This document shows positions 6,871-63,652 of a stretch of DNA of 64,000 bases, piece after piece. Position numbers and translations under genes: made by a program. This DNA is from Ignavibacteria bacterium. Lineage in GTDB: Bacteria; Bacteroidota; Ignavibacteria; Ignavibacteriales; Ignavibacteriaceae. The notes beneath the pieces were generated by a model. That model searched no databases, was not told the DNA's origin, and worked only from the letters and a program-made list of their open reading frames with translations. Position 1 is the stretch's first letter. Each line of letters begins with the position of its first letter. Where the stretch lies: assembly GCA_030684555.1 (NCBI GenBank), contig JAUXVN010000112.1, positions 62,001 through 126,000 on the forward strand. The letters run 5' to 3'.

Positions 6871-7067
6871 TAGTTTACTTTTTTTTATCAGTTGGAATAG
6901 AACATATTAAGTGCCAAGAATTGGGAAAATTCTAATTCGAATTTGAGCGTTAAAGCCTATTTTTTAACGGAAATTGCAAATTTTTCTTTTTAATAAGAAG
7001 ATTTTCTTTGCAAAAAATAAAAATACTTGACGTATGGCAATTAACAGAGATAAAAAGAATATCAACC
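6871..7067 (-). promoter_or_regulatory. Upstream control region of the hydrogenase operon
   Basis: This 197-bp gap precedes the operon start at 6870. It holds a perfect dyad with 6-bp arms (AGAATT at 6917-6922, AATTCT at 6928-6933) followed directly by the palindrome AATTCGAATT at 6934-6943. Read on the minus strand, 6918-6899 gives TTGGCAC then 5 nt then ATGTT, which matches the -24 half of a sigma-54 promoter well but the -12 half poorly. Further upstream at 7027-7040 is TTGAC-N4-GGCAA, a dyad of the general Crp/FNR type. None of these sites is proven. Confidence 0.35.
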
Positions 7068-8156
7068 TTAGATTAAAGTTGCTTGAAATAACTTTAATGA
7101 ATCATAAACTTCATCTTTGGTGGCTTCAACATCTATCACAATTTCACCGACCCCCTTAACCAGAACAAATTTTATTTGTCCATTACGATTTTTCTTGTCT
7201 GATAACATTGCTCTATAAGCTGAAGACTTATCTGTTTTAAGCTTTGCAGCTTTTAAAGGAATGGATAAACTCAATGATAACAAATGGTTTAGTTCAACCT
7301 CATCAATTAAACCTTTGATAAAGGACAAGAAAAGTGAACATCGGATACCCGCTATAACAGCTTCACCATGTTTTATTCTGAAGTTAAGACTGCTCTCAAA
7401 GGCATGTGCAAAAGTATGTCCTAGATTTAATATTTTTCTTATACCTTCTTCAGTTTCATCCTGAGCTACAATTGCAGCCTTTATTTTAAGTGAAGTATGA
7501 ATTATCATCTCAATAGATTTAGAATCTAATTTCAACAAATTATTAAGATTGTTAGAAATGTATTTGAAGAGAGTTAAATCATACAAATACCCATATTTTA
7601 TTACTTCACCAATTCCACAAATTATTTCTCGTTCCGGAAGTGTTTTTAAGAATTTTGTGTCGATTAAAACATAGTCAGGCTGGAAAAATGTTCCCACAAT
7701 ATTTTTTTTATTGTTAAAATTAATCCCGGTTTTACCCCCAACCGAACTGTCTACCACCGCTAATAAAGTTGTTGGTATTTGTACAAGTTTTATTCCTCGT
7801 TTGTAAATAGAAGCTGCGAATCCGGCAATATCGCCCGTTATTCCCCCACCTATGCTAATGAGCCAGGAATCTCTTCCATAATTTTCTTTTGAAAGTTTTG
7901 TTAATATTTGCTCAATACTTTTTAATGATTTATTCTTCTCACTTGCATTTACAATATGTTTAGTTACTTTCAGAAACTCCTTATTCAAGAAATTTACAAC
8001 GTCCGGATAAAGTAACTTTACATTCTTGTCTATTACAATAAACACATTATTAATAGAATATTTGTCCTTGAGTTTTTTAATTTCTGCTTTTACAATATTT
8101 TCATCAATTAATATTTGAGAGGTTTTGTACAGAGTTTCGATTTTTAGACGTTTCAT
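7068..8156 (-). CDS. aroB: 3-dehydroquinate synthase
   Basis: Converts DAHP to 3-dehydroquinate, the second step of the shikimate pathway, using NAD and a divalent metal. At 362 residues it has normal length. The NAD/phosphate-binding glycine-rich segment GGGITGDIAGF is near residues 102-112, followed by the PTTLLAVVDSSVGGKTG block near 128-144. The metal-binding residues are a Glu in the GEVIKYG segment (about 183) and the histidines in LGHTFAHAFE (about 246-249) and in KHGEAV (about 263). It lies 7 bp downstream of aroK, so the two pathway genes are co-transcribed. No unusual residues were noticed. Confidence 0.96.
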   Translation of the reverse strand: MKRLKIETLYKTSQILIDENIVKAEIKKLKDKYSINNVFIVIDKNVKLLYPDVVNFLNKEFLKVTKHIVNASEKNKSLKSIEQILTKLSKENYGRDSWLISIGGGITGDIAGFAASIYKRGIKLVQIPTTLLAVVDSSVGGKTGINFNNKKNIVGTFFQPDYVLIDTKFLKTLPEREIICGIGEVIKYGYLYDLTLFKYISNNLNNLLKLDSKSIEMIIHTSLKIKAAIVAQDETEEGIRKILNLGHTFAHAFESSLNFRIKHGEAVIAGIRCSLFLSFIKGLIDEVELNHLLSLSLSIPLKAAKLKTDKSSAYRAMLSDKKNRNGQIKFVLVKGVGEIVIDVEATKDEVYDSLKLFQATLI

Positions 8157-8163
8157 ATTTTTC

Positions 8164-8706
8164 TCATAAAAATTTTTTATAAATCAGTTTCACAATCAAG
8201 TCGACAGCTTTACCTACATCAGTTTTTTCGACACTAAAAGTCAAATCGGCTGACGAATAGTATTTTTCTCTTTCTGATATCATTTTTTTTATTCGCTCAA
8301 TTGCTTCCTCTTTAGAGAGTAGTTTATTATCTACACCTTGAAAAAGCGGACGATTTGTTTTATGTCTTAACCTAAAATAAAGATCTTCTGGAGTACTTTT
8401 TATATAGATAGTTTTTCCGGATAACTTTATTAAATTCAGATTTTCTGGAATTGTTATAGTTCCACCTCCAAGAGAAACTACCACATCATCTGATTTAATT
8501 ACTTCTTTCAGAACCTCCGATTCAATTTCCCGAAAATACTTTTCACCATGAAGTTTAAATATTCCGGCTATTTTCAGATTTAATTTGGTTTCAATTTCTC
8601 TGTCTAAATCTACAAAGTTCCAGCCGATCGAATTTGCTAAAATTTGACCGAGCGTACTTTTACCGGAACCCATAAAGCCTGTTAGAAAAATTCTTTTACA
8701 TTTCAT
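8164..8706 (-). CDS. aroK: Shikimate kinase
   Basis: ATP-dependent phosphorylation of shikimate to shikimate 3-phosphate. The P-loop GFMGSGKST is near the N-terminus, the shikimate-binding Asp-Arg (LDREIE) follows, then the GGGT motif near residue 78 and the lid region NRPLF. I chose the ATG at 8706, which gives 180 residues and starts four residues before the first beta strand. The open frame extends to a TTG at 8763, but those 19 extra residues are unlike the family. Neither candidate has a strong Shine-Dalgarno sequence. It is the first gene of the aroK-aroB pair and is separated from the upstream PpiD-like gene by a terminator hairpin. Confidence 0.93.
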   Translation of the reverse strand: MKCKRIFLTGFMGSGKSTLGQILANSIGWNFVDLDREIETKLNLKIAGIFKLHGEKYFREIESEVLKEVIKSDDVVVSLGGGTITIPENLNLIKLSGKTIYIKSTPEDLYFRLRHKTNRPLFQGVDNKLLSKEEAIERIKKMISEREKYYSSADLTFSVEKTDVGKAVDLIVKLIYKKFL

Positions 8707-8766
8707 CAAGGTGAAGTTTATAGTTGTAAAATAATTTGGGGATTTTCGATGTGAAATATTCAATTT

Positions 8767-8804
8767 AAAATAAAAAATCCCTCTTCAAGTTAATGAAGAG
8801 GGAT
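8767..8804 (-). terminator. Rho-independent terminator of the PpiD-like gene
   Basis: Perfect 11-bp inverted repeat, ATCCCTCTTCA at 8777-8787 and TGAAGAGGGAT at 8794-8804, with a 6-nt loop. On the minus strand the stem is followed by a T-rich run (complement of 8767-8776). It starts about 16 bp after the stop codon of the gene at 8820-10901, so it ends that transcript before aroK. Confidence 0.85.
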
Positions 8805-8819
8805 AAATATTAAAAACAC

Positions 8820-10901
8820 TTATCTGCCAAAAAAGAGGTGTCTGTTATCCCTAATATTTGCTGTTTCTTTCAAATTAGCAATCCACTGCTGATAATAGGA
8901 ACTCTTTTTTTCTTGATATAAGTTATCTCTTAGTGAATTTCGCTGCATAGTAAATGTGTTATTATCAAATTCATTTCTTGATAGAGTTCTGATTAAATAA
9001 TAACCTCTTAATCCTCGCACCGGATCTGAAATAGAGTTTAACTTTTGTTCATAAGCTGCTGAACTAACTGAATATTCAACTCCCAATTTCGGGACTGAAC
9101 CGGCAGTAGTAAAATTTGCAGAAGTATCATATCTTGCGAAAGCATAAACATCTTTTGCTTTTGATAAATTACTCCCAACTTTTGCTTTAATATTTTTAGC
9201 GATTACCGATGCTTTTTCAAACTTCTTTTCACGCTTTACTAAATTTTCGACTTCTGTTTTCACTTCTTCAAAAGGTTTAACGCCTGCATTAATAATTTCA
9301 CTTACTAATACAACAGTATAACCATTTGTAGTTTTATAAACGCTGCTTACTGTATTAAGTCCGTTGTCAAATGCGAATTCGACTAAACCTTTGTTATATC
9401 CGATACCCGGAACAGCATAAACATCTTTGTTGAAAGGAGTTGATTCATTTACTTGATATTTACCTAATTCAGCTTCTTTCTCAAAACCATTTTTAGCAGC
9501 TAGAAAGGAAAAATCGGTTGCTTGATTAAAAATTTCGTCTCGTGTTGTTGCTGAATATTTTACTGAATTAGTAATTTTTTCAACTACAAACTTTTTATTA
9601 ATCTTATCTACAACTTTTATAATATGATAACCGTATGTGGTTTTAACGGGCTTTTGAACAACACTAACAGGTCCATTAAAACAAGCATCTTCAAATTCTT
9701 TTACCATTCTTCCCTTTGCAAACCATCCAAGATCACCACCATTTGCAGCACTTCCGGGATCTTTCGATTTTTGTTTTGCAATAGTTGCAAAATTTGCTCC
9801 CTTTGTTAACTCATCATAAATCTGATTGGCTTCGGCTAAATCTTTAGCATCATCACCTGTTGATTGAATCAATACATGAGATGCTTTGACTAAAACCTCT
9901 GTTGAAGGAGATGTCCCTATTAGTTTATAGATTCCGTATCCTTGTGGAGTAGTAACCGGTCCAATAATTTTTCCACTTGAAGCATTAACAATTTCAACAC
10001 TAACAGGTAGAGCTTCGATTGATACCGTATCGCGGCTGTAAGGTGTTTCGGAATAAATATCTACATAAGATTTAAAGTCGGAAGTATCTGATTTAAGTCT
10101 CTCCATAACATTTTGAAGATTTTGTAATACAGCATTACTATCTTTTCTGGAAGGTGCTAATTTGAAATTTAAATACTTTAACTTTCGTTGAGCATCAATT
10201 GTAAATTTATCAGGATTTTCCTTATAATATTTACTGAGTTCTGAGTCAGTGAAATCAACAGTAGAATCAGCTATAGAGTTAACATCAACTATAACCCAAT
10301 CAGCAGTCATTTTAATGTTTTGATCAATAAAGCGCTGTTTTATTTCTGCTTCACTAACATTTATAGTTGCGTATAAAGTATGTTCTAATTTTTGACTTAA
10401 CAATGACTGACGAACAGCTTCTTCAGCTTGTAAAAGAGCTTCTTTATTTCGCGGATCAAATAAAGCTTGCTCAAAGAACTCACGATTGAAATTTCCGGTC
10501 GAATCAATAAAATTCCTTTTTAGAAATTCGGGTGGGTTTTCACCGAGAATTACATCTCTAATTTCCTCATCAGAAACCGTTATTCCCAGTTTCTTTAATG
10601 TTTGTTCGGTTAATGTTTGGGTAATTACTGCGTCCCATACTTGATCCCGAAACTGTTCCATATTTTCTTCATCAACATCCTGACCTGTTTGAGCTTTTTG
10701 ATTTTCCCTTGCTCTGTCAATGTATGCCATGAAATCTTGATATGAAATATCTGTTCCGTTAATTGATGCAATATTGTTGGTTCTTCCTCCAAATGCCTCT
10801 AAAACATTTGAATCAGAAATAACCATAAACAATACAAACAATACTCCGACCGTAATTATAAAAGCCGGTGCTAAATCTCTCATCTTGGCCATCATAGCCA
10901 T
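8820..10901 (-). CDS. ppiD: Membrane-anchored peptidyl-prolyl cis-trans isomerase (PpiD/SurA-like)
   Basis: Periplasmic folding factor of 693 residues held in the inner membrane by one N-terminal helix (about residues 11-30, after a short Lys/Arg-containing start). A SurA_N-like chaperone region follows (about 40-200). The clear parvulin (PpiC) domain is at about 335-440, with the typical KASHVLIQ, GGDLGWFAKGRMVKEFEDA and YGYHIIKV blocks. A weaker parvulin-like segment precedes it (about 220-330) and another rotamase-like stretch follows (about 490-575). The two-arm layout resembles PpiD of E. coli, but exact orthology is uncertain. It is a single-gene unit with its own terminator and diverges from the TetR gene at 11040. 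Confidence 0.88.
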   Translation of the reverse strand: MAMMAKMRDLAPAFIITVGVLFVLFMVISDSNVLEAFGGRTNNIASINGTDISYQDFMAYIDRARENQKAQTGQDVDEENMEQFRDQVWDAVITQTLTEQTLKKLGITVSDEEIRDVILGENPPEFLKRNFIDSTGNFNREFFEQALFDPRNKEALLQAEEAVRQSLLSQKLEHTLYATINVSEAEIKQRFIDQNIKMTADWVIVDVNSIADSTVDFTDSELSKYYKENPDKFTIDAQRKLKYLNFKLAPSRKDSNAVLQNLQNVMERLKSDTSDFKSYVDIYSETPYSRDTVSIEALPVSVEIVNASSGKIIGPVTTPQGYGIYKLIGTSPSTEVLVKASHVLIQSTGDDAKDLAEANQIYDELTKGANFATIAKQKSKDPGSAANGGDLGWFAKGRMVKEFEDACFNGPVSVVQKPVKTTYGYHIIKVVDKINKKFVVEKITNSVKYSATTRDEIFNQATDFSFLAAKNGFEKEAELGKYQVNESTPFNKDVYAVPGIGYNKGLVEFAFDNGLNTVSSVYKTTNGYTVVLVSEIINAGVKPFEEVKTEVENLVKREKKFEKASVIAKNIKAKVGSNLSKAKDVYAFARYDTSANFTTAGSVPKLGVEYSVSSAAYEQKLNSISDPVRGLRGYYLIRTLSRNEFDNNTFTMQRNSLRDNLYQEKKSSYYQQWIANLKETANIRDNRHLFFGR

Positions 10902-11039
10902 AATATTATTCTCTCCAGATCTGTTGTAATAAAATTAAGAAGGTAAAAATAGACACAATAGGCAAAAAAAGCAAAGTAAATTTAAACTGATTATTACTAT
11001 TTTTAGGAATATGATTTAGTAAAATAATATGAGAACTTA

Positions 11040-11633
11040 GTGAAAAACCGAAAAAAGGAAATAATCCATGCCGCAATGAAAAGATTCGCAAAGCATGGTT
11101 TGAATAAAACAACGTTGGATGAAATTGCCCGGGATATGAGAATAGGAAAGGCAACTATCTATCACTATTTTACATCTAAACAAGAATTGTATAATGAATC
11201 GGTTACTTCTGAAATTGATTTACTGATTGAGACTATCGGCTCAATTTTTAATAAAGATGAAATTACCTTAGAAGAACGATTGAATTTGTTTATTTCAACC
11301 AAGTTTAGATTGCAACATAATTTCCCATTAATTTTTATGTTGATTAAGAATAATCTGAATGAAAATCGTCTTGATTTTGAACGTGAGTTGTTGAATGTTT
11401 TATTTTATAAAGAAGTAAGTATAGTAAGATTATTTATTTCAGCAATTACAAAAGATATTCCTGATCAAAAGAGTATCGAATTCAGTAAAATATTAGTTAT
11501 GCAAAGTTACAATATTTCGCTTATGCAAGAATTCGATTTGCTTGATGAAAACTCAATTTTGGAAGATCGAATCAACGGGTATTTTTATTTTTTTAAACGC
11601 TTATTCCCTGTGATCGAAAATCCGGTTAATTAA
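11040..11633 (+). CDS. TetR/AcrR family transcriptional regulator
   Basis: DNA-binding regulator of 197 residues starting with GTG at 11040. The N-terminal TetR helix-turn-helix is clear: KKEIIHAAMKRFAKHG, then TTLDEIARDMRIGKATIYHYF at about residues 23-44. The C-terminal ligand domain (about 55-195) is divergent, as usual, and gives no hint of the effector. It is divergent from the PpiD-like gene, with 138 bp between the starts, and convergent with phoU. Its stop codon shares bases with the phoU stop inside the tetranucleotide TTAA at 11630-11633. No adjacent efflux genes are present, so the target is unknown. Confidence 0.93.
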   Translation: MKNRKKEIIHAAMKRFAKHGLNKTTLDEIARDMRIGKATIYHYFTSKQELYNESVTSEIDLLIETIGSIFNKDEITLEERLNLFISTKFRLQHNFPLIFMLIKNNLNENRLDFERELLNVLFYKEVSIVRLFISAITKDIPDQKSIEFSKILVMQSYNISLMQEFDLLDENSILEDRINGYFYFFKRLFPVIENPVN

Positions 11634-12325
11634 TCCTCATCCTCTTTCTCGTCACCATTGAAAATAAATTTTTCATAATTGTGTTTAATCATTTGAGCTT
11701 CAACAATAAAATAGACATCCTCCGCAATATTGGTTGCATGATCCCCCATTCTTTCCATCATTCTAGTAATCACTAAAAATGCAACTGCAGGTTCAATATT
11801 ATTTTTATCCTCTTTCATTATTTCGATTAAAACTTTATGATTGTAAGCATTCATTTCATCAAGGGCGTCATCTGTTGATATAACTTTTTGTGCTAATTTA
11901 GCATTATTCTCAATAAAAGAATCGATGGCATTTTTTATCATATCTTTTACAATAATTGACATCTCATTGATTTTTAAACGCGAATAAAATTCTGGTTTTT
12001 TACCGGAGATTAAAAAATTCTCTGCAATATTAACAGCAATATCACCTATACGTTCAAGATTGTTGTTAATTGTTAAAGCTGACATTATCAAACGAAGATC
12101 CATTGCTACCGGTTGATTGAGTGCAAATATTTTCTGGCATATTCTATCAATTTTCAGATCGTATTTATCAACTTTAGCATCACGTTCAATTACAATTTTT
12201 GCTAAATCACTATTTTCTTCTTCAACTGCTTTTATTACAAACTCAACTTGTTCATCAACAAGACTGCACATTTTAATAATTTTAGTTTTAAGCTTTTCCA
12301 GCTGTTGGTCGAAATGACGTTCCAT
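11630..12325 (-). CDS. phoU: Phosphate transport system regulatory protein PhoU
   Basis: Negative modulator of the Pst transporter and of the phosphate two-component system. At 231 residues it has two PhoU three-helix repeats, each carrying the metal-binding signature: ERIGDIAVNIAEN at about residue 87-99 and ERMGDHATNIAED at about 192-204. It is the last gene of the pst operon, 27 bp after pstB. No PhoR/PhoB pair is encoded in this window. Confidence 0.96.
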   Translation of the reverse strand: MERHFDQQLEKLKTKIIKMCSLVDEQVEFVIKAVEEENSDLAKIVIERDAKVDKYDLKIDRICQKIFALNQPVAMDLRLIMSALTINNNLERIGDIAVNIAENFLISGKKPEFYSRLKINEMSIIVKDMIKNAIDSFIENNAKLAQKVISTDDALDEMNAYNHKVLIEIMKEDKNNIEPAVAFLVITRMMERMGDHATNIAEDVYFIVEAQMIKHNYEKFIFNGDEKEDED

Positions 12326-12352
12326 TTTTTAATCCTTTTGCATTTATAATAT

Positions 12353-13111
12353 TTAACCGAATCTGCCTGTTACATAATCCTCAGTCTGTTTAAAAGAAGG
12401 ATTCGTAAATATTTTTGTTGTTTTATCGTATTCAATTAATTCGCCAATATAGAAGAACGCTGTTAAATCACTAACCCGTGCGGCTTGCTGCATGTTATGA
12501 GTTACTATCACAATTGTGTATTTAGTTTTTAAATCGTGAATTAACTCTTCTATTTTAGCAGTAGAAATTGGATCGAGTGCACTCGCAGGTTCATCCATTA
12601 ATAAAATTTCAGGTTTAACCGCAAGCGCCCTTGCAATGCATAACCTTTGCTGTTGACCACCTGATAAACTCAATGCAGGTTCATTTAATCTGTCCTTAAC
12701 TTCATCCCATATAGCAGCTTGCTTACAAGTTGTTTCTGCAGTTTCTAAGAGAATATTTTTGTCCCTAATTCCGTTAAGTCTTAAACCAAAAACTAAATTT
12801 TCAAAAACCGATTTTGGAAATAAGTTTGATTTTTGAAAAACCATCCCAACTCGTTTTCTTAGATTTACAACATCAAGAGATTTATCATAAATATCAATCC
12901 CATCAATTAAAACTTCTCCAGTAATATTAACAGAATCAATTAAATCATTCATTCGATTTAATGTTCTTAAGAATGTTGATTTACCGCATCCTGAAGGACC
13001 GATAAATGCTGTTACTTGTTTAGATGGAATATTTAATGAAATATTCTTTAAAGCTTGTTTGGTGCCGTAATAAAGATTAAGGTTCTTAATTGATATTTTT
13101 ACATCTTTCAT
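12353..13111 (-). CDS. pstB: Phosphate ABC transporter ATP-binding protein PstB
   Basis: ATPase of the high-affinity phosphate importer, 252 residues. Walker A is GPSGCGKST (about 38-46), the Q-loop is in [13 protein letters not shown], the ABC signature is LSGGQQQRL (about 149-157), Walker B is ILLMDEP, and the switch His is in VTHN. The N-terminal FYGTKQAL-type start is typical of PstB (here LYYGTKQAL). It follows pstA by 22 bp in the pstSCAB-phoU operon. Expression is probably induced by phosphate limitation from the Pho box upstream of pstS. Confidence 0.97.
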
Positions 13112-13133
13112 AGTTTTTTAAAATCCATTCGAA

Positions 13134-14081
13134 TCAATTTCTCCCAAGAGATTTTCTAAATTTATATCTAAATAAAATTGCTGTAATATTTAATAGTATT
13201 GTCAATGCTATCAATACCAACGTTGCCCCATATTGCAAAGGTAGAGATTTAGTTGGATTAGACGATTGTGTAGCCAATATAAATATATGATACGCAAGAT
13301 ACATAAATTGTTCGGTTGGATTAATCATCGGGATACAATACCCCCAGATACAAAGATCAGCTACAGGTAAACTTGGGAGGAAAAATGCACAACCGAGAAA
13401 TAAGATAGGTGCAGTTTCACCAACACCACGACTTATCGCTAAAATGGTTCCGGTCAGAATGCCGGGTCTAGCTTGAGGTAACACAACGCTTTTAATTGTT
13501 TGCCACTTAGATGCTCCTAAACCATATGATGCATCTCGATGACTTTTAGGAACTGAATTTAATGCTTCCAATGTTGAAATAATCACTATCGGTAAAACCA
13601 AAACTGCAAGAGTTGAAGATGCCCAAAGCAAAGCAGGCTGTCCGAATAAAAGACCTGTTTCAAGTACTTCATCTAAATTTTTTCCGATAAAAAGGATGAA
13701 GAAACCTAATCCAAATAGTCCAAAAACTATTGAAGGAATACCAGCAAGATTATTAATTGATGTTCTAATTATTCTATAGAAAAAAGAGTCTTTTGCATAT
13801 TCACTTAAATATATAGCTGCGAATACTCCTAAAGGAACTGCAAACAACACCATCACAACAGTTACTGCAATTGTGCCAAAAATTGCTGGACCAATTCCCC
13901 CCTCTGTCATATTATTTTTTGGTTCATCAAAAATGAATTCTAAACTTATTATCCCTATTCCTTCAATAAATATTTTCCCAATCAAAACTAGAAGGATTAA
14001 AATGAGAAAAAAGAAAAGAATTCTGGTAGAACTGATCAGAAGAAATCCGGATACATCACGTTTTTTTTTGGTTAGTTCCAA
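13134..14081 (-). CDS. pstA: Phosphate ABC transporter permease PstA
   Basis: Second membrane subunit of the Pst importer, 315 residues, with about six hydrophobic helices and the BPD_transp_1 EAA-type loop (about 183-202: DASYGLGASKWQTIKSVVLP). The first helix follows a short basic N-terminus. It lies 14 bp after pstC and is homologous to it, as expected for the PstC/PstA pair. The C-terminus ends in a basic cytoplasmic tail. No anomalies seen. Confidence 0.96.
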   Translation of the reverse strand: MELTKKKRDVSGFLLISSTRILFFFLILILLVLIGKIFIEGIGIISLEFIFDEPKNNMTEGGIGPAIFGTIAVTVVMVLFAVPLGVFAAIYLSEYAKDSFFYRIIRTSINNLAGIPSIVFGLFGLGFFILFIGKNLDEVLETGLLFGQPALLWASSTLAVLVLPIVIISTLEALNSVPKSHRDASYGLGASKWQTIKSVVLPQARPGILTGTILAISRGVGETAPILFLGCAFFLPSLPVADLCIWGYCIPMINPTEQFMYLAYHIFILATQSSNPTKSLPLQYGATLVLIALTILLNITAILFRYKFRKSLGRN

Positions 14082-14095
14082 TTCAATTCCTGTTA

Positions 14096-15088
14096 TTAAA
14101 ACGTATTTTTCTTACGCATTTTGAAAATAATAATTTCAGCAAAAAGATTTAGCACAAATGTGATTATAAATAAAACTATACCGATAAAGAATAAAGCATA
14201 ATAATGATCTGATCCCTGTGATACCTCACCCATTTCAGCAGCAATAGTGGCTGTCATCGTCCTTACACTTTTGAAAATATCAAGTGTCATATTAGACGCA
14301 TTTCCCGAAGCCATCAGAACTATCATCGTTTCACCGACAGCTCTTCCAAAACCGAGAATAATACTGGCTGAAACACCACTGAATGCAGCCGGAAGAATAA
14401 CTTTACTTATAGTTTGCCATTTTGTTGCTCCCATTCCGTAAGAAGCCATTCGTAAATCGACAGGAATTGATCTTAAAGCATCTTCAGTTAACGAGGCGAT
14501 AATCGGAATTATTACAATAGATAAACCCATCGAAGCTACAAAAGCATTTAATCTATTTGAAGGGTGCAGAAGTTCTTGAAAAAAAGTTGCTCCAATAGCC
14601 AGCATGATAAACCCGATTACAACAGTCGGAATGGCTGCAAACAACTCAATCGCCGGTTTTAAAAATTCTCTAAACCTTGGATGTGCAATTTCAGAAAGAT
14701 AAATACCAGCAGCCACTCCGAATATTGTTGAAATAATTGTTGCAGGTATAGCGGTCAATAATGTCCCGCCTAATAATGGAACAAGTGAATATCTTGCCAG
14801 TTCAGATGTTGGATACCATTCATAAACCCGTTGAACAACATTATTAATATCAAGTCTATCTGTGTATATAAAATCGAGTAATCCGATGTGAGAAAAAGCT
14901 TTAATTCCTTCTTTGAATAAAAAGATAAAAATTAGGATTATAAAAATTAAAGCCGTTAAACCATTTAGGGTAAAGAATAATTTTATCAACGACTCTTTAT
15001 ATCGTGAAAACCTCGTGGTCTTTTTACCAAAACTCGAGTCTGAGGGAAGAGTTTCAAAAACAATACTGTCTTTACCGTTTAGTTCCAT
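14096..15088 (-). CDS. pstC: Phosphate ABC transporter permease PstC
   Basis: First membrane subunit of the Pst importer, 330 residues with an N-terminal cytoplasmic extension of about 35 residues before the first helix. The EAA-type loop MASYGMGATKWQTISKVILP lies at about residues 213-232, just before the conserved GFGRAVGETM segment. It lies 13 bp after pstS and 14 bp before pstA. The large periplasmic loop after the first helix (about 75-105) is typical of PstC. Function is assigned with high confidence from family and gene order. Confidence 0.96.
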   Translation of the reverse strand: MELNGKDSIVFETLPSDSSFGKKTTRFSRYKESLIKLFFTLNGLTALIFIILIFIFLFKEGIKAFSHIGLLDFIYTDRLDINNVVQRVYEWYPTSELARYSLVPLLGGTLLTAIPATIISTIFGVAAGIYLSEIAHPRFREFLKPAIELFAAIPTVVIGFIMLAIGATFFQELLHPSNRLNAFVASMGLSIVIIPIIASLTEDALRSIPVDLRMASYGMGATKWQTISKVILPAAFSGVSASIILGFGRAVGETMIVLMASGNASNMTLDIFKSVRTMTATIAAEMGEVSQGSDHYYALFFIGIVLFIITFVLNLFAEIIIFKMRKKNTF

Positions 15089-15101
15089 TAGTTTTAGAAC
15101 T

Positions 15102-16016
15102 TTATTTATTTTCTTTTAAAGGAAGAGGAATATATTCCATTTCTTCAACTAGTTTTTGTCCTTGTGTTGAAACAACAAATGAAATAAAATCTTTCACTGT
15201 TTTATTATTTGTAGATGCTACATACATATATAATGAACGTGAAATTGAATAATCTCCACTCCATATTGCAGTATAATTTACTACTTTATTTTCTGAAGGA
15301 GAAATTCCAACTGACTCACTATTTTTCTTCACATGTAAAATTTTAACATCATCACGATGAGCAAAATAACCAACTCCGCCGTATGCAATTCCGTTTTTAT
15401 CTTTCGCGACTGCTTCAGCTAATGATGCTGTTCCTTGAAGCACCTGGGTTGAAGTAGCATAATCAAATGGATTACCATTTGCATCTTTTCCGAGCACATG
15501 GTCCTTGAAAAACTCATATGTTCCGCTGCTATTCTCACGCCCATACAGATTAATTTTTTGATTCTCACCTTTCAACTGTTGAAAGTTAGAAATTTTTCCG
15601 ACAAACACATCTCTTATTTCTTCCATAGTTATATTATCTATCGGATTGGAGGGATGAACAATTACTGCTAATCCGTCAAGAGCAACTGCAATTTCTTCAT
15701 AATTAATATTTTTTGATTTGGCTAATTCAACTTCCTTTGGTTTTAATTCACGGCTTGAAGTAGCAATATCGGTAGTACCATTGAGTAATGCAGCAACTCC
15801 TGTCCCCGATCCACCACCGGTAACTTGTATTGATACGTTAGGAGTTTGTTGCATATAAACTTCTGCCCATTTTTGAGCAAGATTAACCATTGTATCAGAA
15901 CCTTTAATCGAGATTACCGATTTTGCTGAATCCTCTTTCTTTTTACAAGAAAAAAACACCATTGAGGTAACAACTAATATTACAATTAAACTATAATATG
16001 AGACTTGATTTCTCAT
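15102..16016 (-). CDS. pstS: Phosphate-binding lipoprotein PstS
   Basis: Periplasmic phosphate receptor of the Pst importer, 304 residues. A lipoprotein signal peptide ends at Cys24 (FFSC, followed by a KKKEDS linker). Phosphate-binding segments are visible: IKGSDTM at about 39-45, GGGSGTG at about 68-74, a TSSREL segment, and the GRENSSGT loop. It is the first gene of pstSCAB-phoU. Upstream lies a three-repeat Pho box (16111-16138) placed 10 bp from a TAACTTTG -7 element, so phosphate-starvation control is likely. Confidence 0.97.
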   Translation of the reverse strand: MRNQVSYYSLIVILVVTSMVFFSCKKKEDSAKSVISIKGSDTMVNLAQKWAEVYMQQTPNVSIQVTGGGSGTGVAALLNGTTDIATSSRELKPKEVELAKSKNINYEEIAVALDGLAVIVHPSNPIDNITMEEIRDVFVGKISNFQQLKGENQKINLYGRENSSGTYEFFKDHVLGKDANGNPFDYATSTQVLQGTASLAEAVAKDKNGIAYGGVGYFAHRDDVKILHVKKNSESVGISPSENKVVNYTAIWSGDYSISRSLYMYVASTNNKTVKDFISFVVSTQGQKLVEEMEYIPLPLKENK

Positions 16017-16092
16017 GATCTATTCCCTTTCATTTTAATTTGAATGCTGAAGAATTATACCTCATCTAGCATAACTCAAACATATCAGAAAA

Positions 16093-16100
16093 CAAAGTTA
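16093..16100 (-). promoter_or_regulatory. Bacteroidota-type -7 promoter element of pstS
   Basis: On the minus strand this reads TAACTTTG, an exact match to the TAnnTTTG -7 element of Bacteroidota promoters. It lies exactly 10 bp downstream of the Pho box and 77 nt upstream of the pstS start codon. A TATAAT-like sequence also occurs on the minus strand near 16059-16054. The -7 element is preferred because of its fixed distance to the Pho box. Confidence 0.5.
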
Positions 16101-16110
16101 AATGATTTCA

Positions 16111-16138
16111 CATTAACCCAATGTTAATAAATTGTTAA
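16111..16138 (-). promoter_or_regulatory. Pho box (three direct repeats, 11-bp period) upstream of pstS
   Basis: On the minus strand three hexamers lie at an exact 11-bp period: TTAACA (16138-16133), TTAACA (16127-16122) and TTAATG (16116-16111). This is the layout bound by PhoB/PhoP-type response regulators, and the hexamer matches the TTAACA half-site known from Bacillus PhoP. It sits about 95 bp upstream of pstS. Binding by a PhoB homologue is inferred; none is encoded in the window. Confidence 0.7.
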
Positions 16139-16237
16139 GTTTTTGAGTTTCAGGGAAACAGAGCCGATTTTATTTGGATTAGACCTCAAGCCTTATTAAA
16201 ATTGAAAACTTAATCTATCATTATTTGGTGACAAATT

Positions 16238-16450
16238 ATGCCTTCAATACTAAATACCTGGATACCGTTTCTTTACCTATATGGTGTCGGGGGAATTTTC
16301 TTTTTTATAGGAATGTACATAGTGAGAAAAAGTGGATCATTAGACATGACAAGGAAAAGTCATAAACGATGGTCTAAAATCCTGTATCTTGGTTTTTTTT
16401 ACTTTATGTTCATTCACTTTATTTTAACAATCGCAGCATTATATTGGTGA
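16238..16450 (+). CDS. Small two-helix membrane protein paired with the symporter
   Basis: Protein of 70 residues with two hydrophobic segments (about 10-27 and 48-66) separated by a basic loop (KSHKRWSK near 41-48), so both termini probably face the same side of the inner membrane. I do not recognise a named family. It ends only 3 bp before the sodium:solute symporter gene, and the two are surely co-transcribed. Small membrane partners of symporter-family transporters are known (for example the YhdT/DUF4212-type subunits), and this protein may play such a role. That is inference from position and topology only. Confidence 0.8.
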   Translation: MPSILNTWIPFLYLYGVGGIFFFIGMYIVRKSGSLDMTRKSHKRWSKILYLGFFYFMFIHFILTIAALYW

Positions 16451-57277: not shown

Positions 57278-60200
57278 ATGGACAATACCCGATCCCAACT
57301 TGAACTTGAAGCGATGCTGGATGAAGCATTTGATAATCTCAACAATGGGAGAGAAAGAGTTGCACTTAGTTTAGCTGAAAAAGTTTATGAAAATATGAAT
57401 GAAGATTCTCATGCTATTTGCTGTCTTGCGTGGGCACATCTCGAAAATGGCAATCCGACTCAAGCGATGGAGTATTCCGATCTTGCAGTAAAAATAGATG
57501 AGGATGCTACTGAACCACGGTTATATCGTGGATTCATCCTAATGAGGATGGGTATTTTTGACGGTGCACTTCAAGATCTAAATTATGTAATTGGTAAGGC
57601 TGATCAATCCCTCGCTCAAGCACACCACCTCAAAGCAAGTTGTCTCGCCGGTGCGAGCAGATGCGATGAAGCTTTAGCTGAATTTGAAAATGCTATAATT
57701 GCTGATAACGGACAAAGTAAACATTATCTTAAACTTCGTGAATGGTTCAGAAAAACTGCGGGAATAAAAACTTCCTTCTTAAAGAAATTAAAAGGTAAAG
57801 ATAAACCATTAATCGATGAAGCTGAAGAAGCTTTCAAAGCAAGAGAATTCTGGTTTTCACTTTGGGCTGTTCGAAAAATTCTTACCGATGCTTCTCTTTC
57901 CGACTTACACCAAAGAGCAATTCTACTTGAGTTAGAAACAATGTTTGCAATGTTTCAATATAAACCGGCACTAAATAAAGCTGAAGAATTAAAAAATACT
58001 TTCGGTGGTGTCGATAGATTTGAAGTGATATATCATAAGTTATCGCAAACTAATCGCCCTAAAAAATCTTCAACAGATATTCGTGCGACTCAAGAAAAAT
58101 CACAATCAGAAAACAAAATAATTACATTAAAGCGAAGAACAGATTTTCAGGTAATTGAAAAAGCATCTGCAAAAACAATCTATGCAAAGACTTTTGATTT
58201 GATTGAGCAGATGAGTACCGGTAATAAAACCTATATCTTACAATTTGTTGAATCGGAAATACAGTACATTGGCGTTGAAGTTGTAATTCAAAATCCATTT
58301 GCTAAACAAGGAAATATAACTATTAACGGTTCTGCAGTTTGGTCATTGAATAATGAAGAAGTCGGACGACATAATTTTGCATTGAATGTTGAAAGTGATT
58401 GGGGGACTGTAATTTTTTCTCAAAGCTGGGGAACAGATGAACCCGGTTTTTGGAAACGCGGACAGGGTAAAGTTGATATTTATATTAATGGTGAAAAAAC
58501 CGTTGAGAAGTGGTTTCTTGTTGGCAATTCAGTAATTGTCGATTACGAATCGCCGGAGATTTACTTTGCCGATCTTGAAACAAATGCACAACAGGACATG
58601 AAAACTGTAGCTGTTCAAGCTTCTGAAGGAAATAAGGATGCAGTACCGGATATGTCTGTTGACGAAATCTTAGCCGAGTTAGATAAGTTTACCGGTTTGA
58701 AAGCAGTTAAACAGGCAATGAGGGATTTTGTCGATTACCTCGAATTCATAAAAGAACGAAAAAAACTTGGACTCAAAACTCAAGAAGGAATTTCACTTCA
58801 TACAGTATTCTTAGGAAATCCAGGTACCGGAAAAACTACAATCGCACGCTTACTAGGAAAAGTTTTTAAGGCGATGGGATTATTACCAAGCGGACATTTA
58901 GTTGAAGTCGATAGATCGTCACTCGTCGGTCAGTATATTGGTGAAACGGCTCAGAAAACTGAAAAAATAATTACCGATTCAATTGGTGGATTATTATTCA
59001 TTGATGAAGCTTATACACTTGTCAAAAAAGGAGGAAGCGGTCAAGATTTTGGTCAAGAAGCAATTGATACTTTATTAAAAAGAATGGAAGATAGAGGAAG
59101 TGAATTTGCTGTGATTGCTGCCGGTTATCCTGACGAAATGAATACGTTTCTCGAATCTAATCCTGGAATGAAATCTCGTTTCACACACTTCTTTGATTTT
59201 GAAGATTTTACTCCTGATGAGATGATTGAGATTTTCAAACAAATGGCAAAGAAGGAAGATTATAACATTGCTGATGCAGCAGTTGAATTCCTAAAAAAAG
59301 AATTAATTCTTCTATATAGAAAAAGAGATAAAACATTTGGAAATGCTCGTCTCGTTCGAAATCTTTTTAACGACGCCAAAATGAAATTAGGGAAACGGTA
59401 TCTCAAACTTCCTGAAAAAATGAGAGATAAAAATGCTCTTTCTACTTTATCAGTTGCTGATATTGAAGAACTATTCAAAGGACAATCAGGTAAAACATAT
59501 AAACTTGTTATAGATGAGGAAAACCTAAAAATTGCACTTGATAAACTAAATACCTTCACCGGACTTGCGAGTGTCAAAAAAGAGATACGCGAATTGGTAA
59601 AACTTGCCCGTTACTATGTTGAGCAAGGCGAAGATATACAAAGTCGATTCTCAGACCACATAGTTTTTACCGGAAACCCCGGCACAGGAAAAACTACTCT
59701 CGCAAGATTATTTTCACAGATTTATTCTGCACTCGGTATTCTTCCCAAAGGTCATCTTGTTGAAGCCGATAGGCAATCTCTTGTGGCAAGTTATGTTGGA
59801 AAAACTGCTGAGAAAACTACTGAAATAATAAATCGAGCTTTGGGTGGAACTTTATTTATTGATGAGGCTTACGCACTTGTAAAAGCAGGTGATAATTCCG
59901 GAAGTGATTTCGGCAAAGAAGCAATTGATACATTACTCAAACGTATGGAAGATGACCGCGGCAAATTTATTGTTATCGCTGCCGGTTATACAGACGATAT
60001 GAAAACTTTTCTTGATAGTAATGTCGGGCTTCAATCGAGATTTACAAAATTTATTAACTTCGAAGATTTTAATCCCGATGAATTAATGTTAATGACAATC
60101 AATTCACTTAAAGAAAAAGAATTGGTATTAGAAGAAAATGCTAAAGAACTTCTCAAAAAACATTTTAACGAAATTTATAGAACAAGAGATAAAACTTTCG

Positions 60201-61204
60201 GTAATGCAAGACTTATTAGAAACTTAGTCGGTGCAATGATTAAAAATCAAGTACTGAGAATCGTTGAAATTAGTCAAGATGATTTATCAGAAGACATAAC
60301 AAAAACGATTACTGTTGATGATATTAAACCAATAGTTTCAGCCGCACCGGTTAAGAAACAAGCCCGTGTTGAAGGGAATAAGGAATTACTTGATCAGTAT
60401 CTATTGGAATTAAAAGAATTAACCGGACTTGAATCTGTTAAAAGATCTGTAGAAAAATTAATAACCGGTTTGAAAGTTTCAAAACTTCGAGAGGAACGTG
60501 GATTAAAAGTTATCAGCAAAAATTTGCATGCAGTTTTTCTTGGGAATCCGGGTACAGGCAAAACAACTATTGCACGATTAATAAGTCAAATTTATAAAGA
60601 ATTAGGTCTTCTCCAAAAAGGGCATTTGGTTGAAGTTGATCGCTCTGCTTTGGTCGCAGGTTACTCCGGACAAACATCCAAAAAAACGGACCAGGTTATT
60701 GAACAAGCACTCGGAGGAACTCTCTTCATTGATGAGGCTTATACGCTGTCAAGAGGTAGCGGCGACTTTGGTCAAGAAGCAATTGATACATTACTTAAAA
60801 GAATGGAAGACTACAGAGATCAATTGGTTGTGATTGTTGCAGGTTATCCAAACGAAATGAAAGACTTCATCGACTCAAACCCGGGATTACAATCTCGTTT
60901 TACCAACTATTTTAATTTTGAAGATTACAACCCGAGAGAAATGTTGGAAATTGCTACAATGATCAGTGAAAAAAATGGGTATAATCTTGATGAAGGTGCT
61001 TTGCAAATGTTATTAGGTAAGTTTACTGAACTCTATCAAAATCGAGACATGAACTTTGGTAATGCCAGAACTGTAAGAAACATTCTTTATAAAGCTATTA
61101 ACAATCAAGAAGAAAGAATTCTTGTCGTTCATAATCCTACTAATGAAGTTCTTACTTCAATTACTTATGAAGATATTGAGAATATTGATATGCGAGAATT
61201 TTAA
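57278..61204 (+). CDS. TPR protein with three tandem CbxX/CfxQ-type AAA+ ATPase modules
   Basis: Cytoplasmic protein of 1308 residues. The N-terminus is TPR-like (about 1-250). A beta-sandwich domain of unknown family follows (about 290-435), and then three AAA+ modules of the CbbX/EccA clan. Walker A motifs GNPGTGKTT start near residues 513, 799 and 1089, each followed by Walker B LLFIDEAY or TLFIDEAY and a GNARLVRN or GNARTVRN sensor 2 motif; all look intact. CbbX family members are Rubisco activases or ESX secretion ATPases, but neither system is present here. The three copies suggest a fused ring subunit. It precedes an ABC exporter on the same strand. The client is unknown. Confidence 0.9.
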   Translation: MDNTRSQLELEAMLDEAFDNLNNGRERVALSLAEKVYENMNEDSHAICCLAWAHLENGNPTQAMEYSDLAVKIDEDATEPRLYRGFILMRMGIFDGALQDLNYVIGKADQSLAQAHHLKASCLAGASRCDEALAEFENAIIADNGQSKHYLKLREWFRKTAGIKTSFLKKLKGKDKPLIDEAEEAFKAREFWFSLWAVRKILTDASLSDLHQRAILLELETMFAMFQYKPALNKAEELKNTFGGVDRFEVIYHKLSQTNRPKKSSTDIRATQEKSQSENKIITLKRRTDFQVIEKASAKTIYAKTFDLIEQMSTGNKTYILQFVESEIQYIGVEVVIQNPFAKQGNITINGSAVWSLNNEEVGRHNFALNVESDWGTVIFSQSWGTDEPGFWKRGQGKVDIYINGEKTVEKWFLVGNSVIVDYESPEIYFADLETNAQQDMKTVAVQASEGNKDAVPDMSVDEILAELDKFTGLKAVKQAMRDFVDYLEFIKERKKLGLKTQEGISLHTVFLGNPGTGKTTIARLLGKVFKAMGLLPSGHLVEVDRSSLVGQYIGETAQKTEKIITDSIGGLLFIDEAYTLVKKGGSGQDFGQEAIDTLLKRMEDRGSEFAVIAAGYPDEMNTFLESNPGMKSRFTHFFDFEDFTPDEMIEIFKQMAKKEDYNIADAAVEFLKKELILLYRKRDKTFGNARLVRNLFNDAKMKLGKRYLKLPEKMRDKNALSTLSVADIEELFKGQSGKTYKLVIDEENLKIALDKLNTFTGLASVKKEIRELVKLARYYVEQGEDIQSRFSDHIVFTGNPGTGKTTLARLFSQIYSALGILPKGHLVEADRQSLVASYVGKTAEKTTEIINRALGGTLFIDEAYALVKAGDNSGSDFGKEAIDTLLKRMEDDRGKFIVIAAGYTDDMKTFLDSNVGLQSRFTKFINFEDFNPDELMLMTINSLKEKELVLEENAKELLKKHFNEIYRTRDKTFGNARLIRNLVGAMIKNQVLRIVEISQDDLSEDITKTITVDDIKPIVSAAPVKKQARVEGNKELLDQYLLELKELTGLESVKRSVEKLITGLKVSKLREERGLKVISKNLHAVFLGNPGTGKTTIARLISQIYKELGLLQKGHLVEVDRSALVAGYSGQTSKKTDQVIEQALGGTLFIDEAYTLSRGSGDFGQEAIDTLLKRMEDYRDQLVVIVAGYPNEMKDFIDSNPGLQSRFTNYFNFEDYNPREMLEIATMISEKNGYNLDEGALQMLLGKFTELYQNRDMNFGNARTVRNILYKAINNQEERILVVHNPTNEVLTSITYEDIENIDMREF

Positions 61205-61238
61205 TTTATAAATTTTAATCTGATTGAAATCCCACCAG

Positions 61239-61958
61239 ATGATAAAAGTAACAAACTTATCTAAATCCTTTGGAAACTTTAAAGCACTTGATAATATTTC
61301 ATTTCAACTTGAAGCCGGTGATTTCGCAGCTTTTTTAGGTCCTAACGGTGCCGGAAAAACAACTGCTATAAAAATTATTGCAGGACTTCTCTCCCCTCTT
61401 TCAGGGAATGTAAGCATTAAAGGATTTGATATAAAATCCAACCCTTTGGAAACAAAACGTTTAATTGGATATATCCCTGACCAACCTTTTCTTTATGATA
61501 AACTTTCAGGATTAGAATTTTTAAAATTTACAGGAGGATTATTCGGATTATCGAAACATGATATAAAGATCCGAATTGAGGAAACTATTGATTTACTTCA
61601 GCTTGGTGAATGGATTTCAAGGAGAACTGAAACATATTCTCAAGGTATGAAACAAAGAGTTTCAATAGCTTCTTCATTATTGAGTGATCCCGATTTCATT
61701 CTGGTCGATGAACCAATGGTTGGACTTGACCCACAAAGTGCGAACATAGTTAAAACAGCATTCAGAAAAAAAGTAAATGAAGGTAAAACCATTTTGATGT
61801 CCACTCATAGTCTTCATATTGCAGAAGAAATCTGTTCTCATATTATAATTTTGAACGAAGGAAAAATTATTTTTGATGATCTCATCGATTCATTCAAATC
61901 TTTTCAAGAAAAAGAATTCCATAATTTAGAATCTTTCTTTTTAGAGATAACCAGGTAA
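61239..61958 (+). CDS. ABC transporter ATP-binding protein (ABC-2 exporter type)
   Basis: ATPase subunit of 239 residues from ATG 61239. The open frame begins at a TTG at 61224, but the start MIKVTNLSKSFG is the family norm. Walker A GPNGAGKTT is at about 35-43, the Q-loop is in YIPDQPFLYDKLSG, the signature is YSQGMKQR (about 134-141), Walker B is FILVDEPMVGLDP, and the switch His is in STHSLH. The last codon overlaps the start of the permease gene by one base (TAATG). It belongs to the DrrA/CcmA-type export subfamily; the exported substrate is not evident. Confidence 0.94.
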   Translation: MIKVTNLSKSFGNFKALDNISFQLEAGDFAAFLGPNGAGKTTAIKIIAGLLSPLSGNVSIKGFDIKSNPLETKRLIGYIPDQPFLYDKLSGLEFLKFTGGLFGLSKHDIKIRIEETIDLLQLGEWISRRTETYSQGMKQRVSIASSLLSDPDFILVDEPMVGLDPQSANIVKTAFRKKVNEGKTILMSTHSLHIAEEICSHIIILNEGKIIFDDLIDSFKSFQEKEFHNLESFFLEITR

Positions 61959-63652
61959 TGTATAAAGAACTATTTCATCTCGGTTACTATAAAATTAAAA
62001 CACTTCTTTACCTTGATTTGGAGTTTAAATTTTCATCAATAATAAAAAATATCGGTTCATTTTTTGTTTATTCACTTTTTATAATCGCCTTCTATTTAAT
62101 ATCACAAACTGCCATTGAGTTGGTACTTGTAAAATATCGATTAGGCTTATTCTTACTTCATCGGTTTTTAGGAATCGGGTTCTTCATGTTCGGGTTAGCA
62201 GTTACAACAGGTAATCTGATTGTTTCTTTTTCAACGCTTTACAAATCACCTGAAATTGACTTTCTACTTTCCAAACCAATCCGATTCGAGAGTATTTTTA
62301 TAATCAAGTTTCTCGATAATTTTTTTTACAGTTCCTCAACCCTTTTTATTTTTTTATTAGCGGGTTTAGCCGGATATGGCAAGTATTTCGATTTATCGAT
62401 CGGATTTTATCTTTGGTCTTTTTTCATTGTAGTACTCCCATTTGTTTTTACTCATGCTGTGATAGGAGTTCTAACTTTATTTTTGTTTATAAAAATATCC
62501 ACTAAAATAGGTGTTAAACTAACGATTTTAATTATTGCATTCTTTTATAGTTTATCAATTATTTATTTTTTCAATGCGAGTAGTCCTCTGAATATGGTCA
62601 TGGAGGTTTTGCCTTACTATCCAAATATTGATATTGATTTTAGTTTTCTGCAATCTCCAATTATTAGTTACCTGCCAAATTTTCTAGCTTCAGATTCTTT
62701 TTTTGCATTCGTTCGTGGTGATAATTTGAGAGTAATTATTAACTCACTTCTTATTTTTCTATTGATGAGCGGGGTGTTTACTCTTGCCGTGATTGTTGCA
62801 GAAAGGTATTATTATAAAAGTTATTTGGATGTGTTGAACTTAAAGTTTTCTAAAAAAGATAAATCTGTTGATCACACTAAATCAATATTTGATAGAACTA
62901 CCATAATGAATCCACAATTTAATTCTCTTATTAAAAAAGAGATTATAATATTTACTCGAGAACCAAGTCAAATTATTCACCTCGCGATAATGATATTACT
63001 GATATTACTTTTTATAAGTGGAATTGGTAGTACTCAATTAATAATATTAAAAGCTGTTTCCCCTCAAATACAAACGATAATTTACCTATCAATTCTGGTT
63101 TTCATATTATTTATGATCATCGCTTTATCACTTCGTTTTGTTTTTCCGATGTTGAGTTTAGAAGGAGAAACTTATTGGAGGTTAAGAACCTCACCAATCG
63201 ATATCAACAAAATTGTAAGAATTAAATTTATTATAATTTTGATGACAACAGGTAGTATCGGTTTCTTTTTGATGAAATTTTCGCATCGTTATTTGTCTGA
63301 TATTTTATACACACAGTCATTGCTGCTTTTACTCTTTACAGTTTTAACAATAGTACCATTAGTTTTTTCAATGGGAACGGTCTATGTCAATTTCAAAGAA
63401 AAAAATCCGATAAGGATTTCATCCTCACAAGGAGCAACCGTCACATTTCTATTATGTCTGGTTTTTCTGACTTTAGTAATTGCTTTAATGTATATTCCGA
63501 TTAATGATTTTTTTGATGCACGGTTTTATGGTAGAATCCCAAATTTTGAGACGCGTGTAAAATCAGTAAATATTATACTTGGAGTGATTGCGTTCTTTAC
63601 ATTTTTTATTTCTTATTTGATCAGCATTAAACAATTTAAAAAAGATATCTAA
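61958..63652 (+). CDS. ABC exporter permease (ABC_tran_2-type, large)
   Basis: Inner-membrane permease of 564 residues with about 12 to 14 hydrophobic helices in two halves separated by a basic cytoplasmic segment (about 285-325: KFSKKDKSVDHTKS and following). The layout and the SKPIRFESIF and EIDFLLSK segments resemble the putative ABC exporter family (PF16949) rather than the usual 250-residue ABC-2 permease. The start ATG overlaps the stop of the ATPase gene by one base. Substrate unknown. Nothing in the neighbourhood indicates one, unless the triple-AAA protein upstream is connected. Confidence 0.86.
   Translation: MYKELFHLGYYKIKTLLYLDLEFKFSSIIKNIGSFFVYSLFIIAFYLISQTAIELVLVKYRLGLFLLHRFLGIGFFMFGLAVTTGNLIVSFSTLYKSPEIDFLLSKPIRFESIFIIKFLDNFFYSSSTLFIFLLAGLAGYGKYFDLSIGFYLWSFFIVVLPFVFTHAVIGVLTLFLFIKISTKIGVKLTILIIAFFYSLSIIYFFNASSPLNMVMEVLPYYPNIDIDFSFLQSPIISYLPNFLASDSFFAFVRGDNLRVIINSLLIFLLMSGVFTLAVIVAERYYYKSYLDVLNLKFSKKDKSVDHTKSIFDRTTIMNPQFNSLIKKEIIIFTREPSQIIHLAIMILLILLFISGIGSTQLIILKAVSPQIQTIIYLSILVFILFMIIALSLRFVFPMLSLEGETYWRLRTSPIDINKIVRIKFIIILMTTGSIGFFLMKFSHRYLSDILYTQSLLLLLFTVLTIVPLVFSMGTVYVNFKEKNPIRISSSQGATVTFLLCLVFLTLVIALMYIPINDFFDARFYGRIPNFETRVKSVNIILGVIAFFTFFISYLISIKQFKKDI

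What the first reader, a model, noticed from the sequence alone, without database searches (positions are those of the whole stretch)
57278..61204. One protein with three intact CbxX-type AAA+ modules, TPRs and a beta-sandwich
CbxX/EccA proteins normally carry one AAA+ module and act as hexamers. Here three complete modules, each with Walker A, Walker B and sensor motifs, are fused behind a TPR region and an unassigned beta domain, with no Rubisco or ESX genes near. It may form a ring of two chains and remodel an unknown target, possibly linked to the ABC exporter downstream.
Basis: partly seen in the sequence, partly recalled or inferred. Interest (0 to 1): 0.6.

Follow-up and report, generated by a model that had tools for sequence, protein, structure and literature searches.

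The report
Three-module CbxX-type AAA+ remodelling ATPase
A large protein-remodelling motor, found across one order of bacteria (Ignavibacteriales), carries three ATPase engines in a row; the way individual engines have died in its relatives suggests that six chains stack into a three-storey ring machine, not the two-chain single ring first proposed, and what it remodels is still unknown.

Summary
The 1308-aa ORF at 57278-61204 is TPR + an all-beta domain + three full CbxX/CbbX-type AAA+ modules, with Walker A, Walker B, pore-loop tyrosine, sensor and arginine-finger motifs intact in all three. It is not a one-off: 50 of 59 relatives have a three-module ortholog. M1, M2 and M3 form separate old clades, and beta-beta-M1-M2 cousins occur elsewhere in the phylum. 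No Rubisco, EccA N-domain or WXG100 hit was found in the genome.

The 'ring of two chains' idea is not supported. In 60 orthologs, 22 modules have lost the catalytic Walker B pair. In 21 the arginine finger of the same module is gone too, while none of 158 live modules has lost its finger, and there is no coupling to a neighbouring module. One ortholog keeps M1 alive between two fingerless modules. This fits homotypic rings, most likely a three-tier hexamer.

The ABC exporter downstream is a real operon neighbour (26 loci), but each gene occurs without the other at chance rates, and the ATPase gene has been lost from the locus with the exporter left, so the exporter is no obligate client. Client unknown. 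SiaC-linked paralogs hint at phosphorylation control. New variant of a known kind.

The parts
57278..61204 (+). CDS, 1308 aa, TPR - all-beta domain - three CbxX-clade AAA+ modules
57299..58063 (+). TPR region (residues 8-262)
   Evidence: Pfam ANAPC3 over its cut-off when scanned alone, other TPR models below theirs; conserved in 31 orthologs
58121..58573 (+). All-beta domain (residues 282-432); no Pfam match of its own, a distant homolog matches DUF3859 weakly
   Evidence: also found as double domain fused to one or two CbxX modules in other families
58649..59473 (+). AAA+ module M1 (residues 458-732); catalytic motifs intact in 59 of 60 orthologs
59507..60334 (+). AAA+ module M2 (residues 744-1019); intact here, dead in 2 of 60 orthologs
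60377..61189 (+). AAA+ module M3 (residues 1034-1304); intact here, degenerate in 19 of 60 orthologs
61224..61958 (+). ABC-2-type exporter ATPase, operon neighbour (short gap, no terminator); the listed TTG start may really be ATG 61239
61958..63652 (+). Exporter permease, PF16949, operon neighbour

Best explanation
The protein is a cytosolic protein-remodelling ATPase of the SpoVK-CbbX-EccA clade. Six chains most likely assemble into a hexamer in which all M1 modules form one ring, all M2 a second and all M3 a third, stacked on one axis. The TPR and beta domains sit at the N-terminal (M1) end and recruit a dedicated client. Pore-loop-1 tyrosines, as in CbbX, then pull on an exposed tail or loop of the client so as to activate or disassemble it; there is no protease domain. 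Shown here: the domain string, intact motifs, separate ancestry of the three modules, within-module coupling of catalytic and finger loss, the exporter operon. Inferred: hexamer, tier order, threading. Unknown: the client.
For: Three modules match CbbX and EccA; an AlphaFold model of the AAA part aligns M1 with CbbX crystal structures at Z 28.6, 3.9 A over 275 residues. The pore tyrosine aligns with CbbX Y114, the Walker B glutamate with E138 and the finger with residue 194 of CbbX; Y114A leaves CbbX ATPase working but kills remodelling (PMC5437159). In 60 three-module orthologs, Walker B loss goes with finger loss in the same module (21 of 22; 0 of 158 live modules lost the finger) and not with the next or previous module (Fisher p = 0.48). 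L053 has live M1 with M2 and M3 both lacking Walker B and finger. The tree needs 5-7 changes for M3 death, and the dead modules are still retained as recognisable domains, like the D1 tier of Pex1/6, which also lacks Walker B and fingers (PMC4490564). M1, M2 and M3 are separate clades across the order, and beta-beta-M1-M2 cousins branch with M1 and M2. Clade members are dedicated chaperones without peptidases (PMC10659427).
Against: No direct oligomer data. Whole-module decay under relaxed selection would also remove both motifs together; the argument rests on the neighbours staying intact. Related counts are not independent and the Fisher p ignores phylogeny. One ortholog (L207) has lost M1, so M1 is not strictly essential. 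One dead M3 (L218) keeps an arginine at the finger position.
Confidence: 0.6

Rival explanations
1. One reading: two chains make one pseudo-hexameric ring, M1-M2-M3-M1'-M2'-M3', like dynein or Rea1 but split in two halves.
For: Three modules per chain divide six; short inter-module linkers (about 12-15 residues) would allow it; two-module variants L070 and L194 (M1+M3 by the tree) could make a trimer ring.
Against: In either ring direction a dead, fingerless M3 would starve M1 or M2 of its finger, yet M1 and M2 stay intact in the M3-dead orthologs except L053, where M2 is dead too. L053's M1 would have no finger from either side. Relatives with 1, 2, 4, 5 and 6 modules show no fixed stoichiometry.
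Confidence: 0.15
2. It is a dedicated chaperone or regulator of the ABC exporter encoded downstream.
For: Directly downstream, same strand, in 26 of 69 loci, usually 0-60 bp, no convincing terminator in 25 of 26 gaps; adjacency in 22 of the 29 relatives that have both.
Against: 22 of 51 genomes with the ATPase lack this exporter; 5 of 8 without the ATPase have it. In L236-L238 the exporter follows groESL with the ATPase gene gone. Outside the order the exporter occurs with other neighbours.
Confidence: 0.2
3. It is a general protein-quality-control unfoldase cooperating with GroEL, whose genes often lie just upstream.
For: groES-groEL directly upstream on the same strand in several family-f1 loci (10 by strict adjacency).
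Against: 9 of the 10 groEL-to-ATPase gaps hold a strong hairpin with a U-run (-13 to -19 kcal/mol), so the genes are probably not co-transcribed; in families f2 and f3 the upstream neighbours differ. Known clade members act on dedicated clients (PMC10659427).
Confidence: 0.12
4. It is the output arm of a phosphorylation-controlled partner switch: a SiaC-like protein docks on the N-terminal domains and switches the motor on or off. This could hold together with the three-tier model.
For: A paralogous TPR-beta-AAAx3 subfamily sits in an operon with response regulator, SpoIIE phosphatase, DUF6272 (SiaB-like), SiaC and an 85-aa protein (L058, L059, L211, L213); L070 has SpoIIE and SiaC upstream. 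SiaC-type proteins are proposed to modulate adjacent proteins (PMC8457831).
Against: No Sia genes next to the window copy; the beta domain of that subfamily is diverged (14-17% identity for L058 and L059).
Confidence: 0.25

Closest known systems
CbbX / red-type Rubisco activase (3SYK, 3SYL, 3ZUH)
   Same: AAA+ module fold and motifs; best structural and sequence match of M1
   Different: CbbX has one module and a Rubisco operon; here three modules, TPR and beta domains, no Rubisco in the genome
EccA (type VII secretion) and Streptomyces beta-helix EccA-like proteins
   Same: TPR or other N-terminal adaptor plus CbxX-clade AAA+; the two Streptomyces plasmid proteins examined match the query over about two modules
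   Different: EccA has one module; the EccA N-domain family PF21545 and WXG100 are not found in this genome; the Streptomyces proteins lie beside T7SS genes
SpoVK (stage V sporulation protein K; activates MurG)
   Same: Same higher-order clade; highest NCBIfam score (782.9 bits, three stretches)
   Different: SpoVK is short, single-module and confined to sporulating Firmicutes (PMC10659427)
CDC48/p97 and Pex1/6 type II AAA+ ATPases
   Same: Tandem AAA+ modules, one tier of which can be dead while retained; Pex1/6 D1 also lacks Walker B and fingers (PMC4490564)
   Different: Two tiers of another AAA subgroup; here three CbxX-clade modules
4-6-module CbxX protein family, with a member in the same genome (G000:C29, locus L034)
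   Same: Tandem CbxX modules, first one degenerate
   Different: No TPR or beta domain; operon with Ser/Thr kinase, FHA-zinc ribbon and PP2C-like genes

Membership tests
SpoVK-CbbX-EccA (CbxX) clade of AAA+ ATPases | GY in the sensor-1 region | tested here: met
   AGY in all three modules
SpoVK-CbbX-EccA (CbxX) clade of AAA+ ATPases | Conserved Asn a few residues upstream of the arginine finger | tested here: met
   SN-x-G-x-x-SRF in all three
SpoVK-CbbX-EccA (CbxX) clade of AAA+ ATPases | Sensor-2 arginine retained | tested here: met
   GNARxxRN in all three
SpoVK-CbbX-EccA (CbxX) clade of AAA+ ATPases | AAA_lid_6 C-terminal lid | tested here: met
   PF17866, three stretches
CbbX (red-type Rubisco activase) | Rubisco client / Rubisco operon | tested here: not met
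   No PF00016 match in the genome (99.97% complete)
EccA (type VII secretion) | EccA N-terminal domain and WXG100 substrates | tested here: not met
   No PF21545 or PF06013 match in the genome
SpoVK | Single module in a sporulating Firmicute | tested here: not met
   Three modules; nearest named relative is an Ignavibacteriaceae MAG at 86%
Type II (stacked tandem) AAA+ ATPase | Each module forms its own homotypic ring | tested here: inconclusive
   Loss pattern supports it; no oligomer structure; model arrangement unreliable
DUF3859 (for the beta domain) | Match to PF12975 over its cut-off | tested here: inconclusive
   Only the distant homolog L184 matches, 21.2 bits against 24; window domain has no match

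The most novel reading that the evidence does not exclude
A homohexameric AAA+ machine with three stacked rings of the CbxX clade: a three-storey remodeller with a TPR-beta crown, in which any storey can be switched off in evolution while kept as scaffold, and whose 4-6-module paralogs would be taller still.
Probability: 0.5. Interest if true: 0.65.

Novelty: new variant of a known kind. Interest (0 to 1): 0.48.

Why it matters
Tandem AAA+ machines with a known mechanism have two stacked rings (CDC48, Pex1/6) or six modules in one chain and ring (dynein, Rea1; own knowledge). A protein with three intact modules of a clade otherwise known from single rings, with a natural series of 1-, 2- and 3-module relatives and of dead modules at each position, makes the question 'what does an extra ring do' directly testable. 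It would also give a client-search target in an order where the gene is nearly universal.

Tried and rejected
AlphaFold of the three-module part: usable modules (pLDDT 79.6) but pTM 0.38, so its arrangement was not used; p97-like hits over two modules had rmsd 12-18 A. AlphaFold of the beta domain with two sequences: pLDDT 45, only the all-beta content is used; not searched for folds. Viral scans for beta-domain relatives found none. Profile of the beta domain against PDB sequences: only chance-level myrosinase hits, E 0.27. groESL linkage as evidence of function: set aside because terminators separate the genes. Exporter as dedicated partner: weakened by independent gain and loss. PADLOC hits to IetA/TRIP13 and the NCBIfam IteA hit (82.6 bits against a cut-off of 510) reflect the shared AAA fold and are not taken as defence. 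Literature: no paper found describing this TPR-beta-AAAx3 architecture in five searches; [quoted passage not shown] A coevolution test between module faces was not run: too few sequences.

Full report
What is there. The ORF at 57278-61204 encodes 1308 aa. Residues 8-262 are TPR-like, 282-432 a conserved all-beta domain with no Pfam match of its own, and 458-732, 744-1019 and 1034-1304 are three CbxX-clade AAA+ modules, 49-50% identical to each other, all with intact Walker A, pore loop, Walker B, sensor-1, arginine finger and sensor-2 motifs. NCBIfam models for SpoVK, EccA and CbbX each match three times above cut-off. The AlphaFold model of the AAA part (pLDDT 79.6) aligns M1 with CbbX at Z 28.6, rmsd 3.9 A over 275 residues. 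The window lies in an Ignavibacteriaceae-type genome of 4.34 Mb; the nearest named relative is MAG contig JAHBUO010000068 with an 86% ortholog.

How widespread. Three-module orthologs occur in 50 of 59 relatives of the same order, and a shortened two-module one in G026 (count made from its list). The beta domain was found in 43 of 395 genomes of the phylum: all but seven in this order, the others with double beta domains. Five of these seven carry beta-beta-AAA-AAA (870-897 aa) and one beta-beta-AAA; the seventh (L184) has no AAA, and double-beta proteins without AAA also occur within the order (L190-L192), some with apparent signal peptides. In a tree of 81 modules, M1, M2 and M3 are separate position-specific groups; beta-beta-AAA-AAA module 1 groups with M1 and its module 2 with M2; two-module TPR-beta variants L070 and L194 keep M1 and M3. 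So a beta-M1-M2 core looks old, and TPR and M3 additions (or ancient losses elsewhere) mark this order.

How the modules are arranged. AAA+ sites are completed by an arginine finger from the neighbouring module (established knowledge). If one chain's three modules sat side by side in a ring, the finger for a site would lie in a different module type; if each type makes its own ring, it lies in the same type. Among 60 three-module orthologs, 22 of 180 modules have lost the Walker B Asp-Glu pair (1 M1, 2 M2, 19 M3). In 21 of them the finger of the same module is lost, and none of the 158 live modules lacks its finger; there is no association with the next or previous module (Fisher p = 0.48 for both; p about 1e-26 within the module, not corrected for phylogeny). 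The tree needs 5-7 changes for M3 death. L053 is the sharpest case: only M1 is alive, with both other modules lacking Walker B and finger. This argues for homotypic rings, so for a stacked three-tier hexamer, and against a ring of two chains. Pex1/6 is a precedent: its retained D1 tier lacks Walker B, fingers and (in Pex1) the pore aromatic (PMC4490564). The AlphaFold monomer cannot decide (pTM 0.38).

What it probably does. CbbX pulls the Rubisco C-terminal tail with pore-loop tyrosine Y114 (PMC5437159); that tyrosine aligns with Y553 in M1 and has counterparts in M2 and M3. The clade consists of dedicated chaperones with variable N-terminal recruiting domains and no peptidases (PMC10659427). 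By analogy, this protein most likely pulls on a specific client recruited by TPR and beta domains. The client is not Rubisco or an ESX substrate: no PF00016, PF21545 or PF06013 match in the genome.

Neighbours. The exporter pair (61224-61958 ATPase; 61958-63652 PF16949 permease) follows the gene in 26 of 69 loci, mostly with 0-60 bp and no convincing terminator in 25 of 26 gaps. However, 22 of 51 genomes with the ATPase lack this exporter and 5 of 8 without the ATPase have it; in three of the latter (G002, G015, G029) the order is groES-groEL-exporter, the same locus without the ATPase gene. The link is best read as co-transcription by shared ancestry and not obligate partnership. groESL lies directly upstream in many family-f1 loci, but a hairpin with a U-run stands between groEL and the ATPase gene in 9 of 10 cases. 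A paralogous subfamily (L058, L059, L211, L213; L070 more loosely) sits with SpoIIE phosphatase, DUF6272 and SiaC genes, which suggests, for those, control by a phosphorylation partner switch.

Verdict. A real, conserved, nearly order-wide new architecture of a known AAA+ clade; the likely three-ring assembly is the interesting part, the client is unknown.

Noticed in passing
L034 (G000:C29:15000-34999), 6662-16291: Same genome: 1391-aa protein with five CbxX modules (first degenerate) in an operon with zinc-ribbon protein, 1025-aa Ser/Thr kinase, FHA-zinc-ribbon protein and a PP2C-like gene; relatives have four to six modules.
   Followed up: partly
L058 8272-14432, L059 5719-11866, L211, L213, L070: Paralogous TPR-beta-AAA proteins (three modules; two in L070) linked to SpoIIE phosphatase and SiaC genes, with DUF6272 (SiaB-like) and an unassigned 85-aa protein in most.
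   Followed up: partly
L190 7475-8308, L191, L192, L184 7116-9098: Proteins with two copies of the beta domain and no AAA module; L190 and L184 begin with an apparent signal peptide, so the domain may also work outside the cytoplasm.
   Followed up: no
L236, L237, L238: groES-groEL-exporter loci with the AAA gene absent, an apparent in-place loss.
   Followed up: yes
L229-L235: Outside the order the same exporter pair is followed by a large, apparently TPR-rich protein and a RadC-like gene (identified by eye from sequence).
   Followed up: no
L224, L225: Streptomyces plasmid proteins annotated as beta-helix repeat proteins match the query over about two CbxX modules and lie next to type VII secretion genes.
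   Followed up: no
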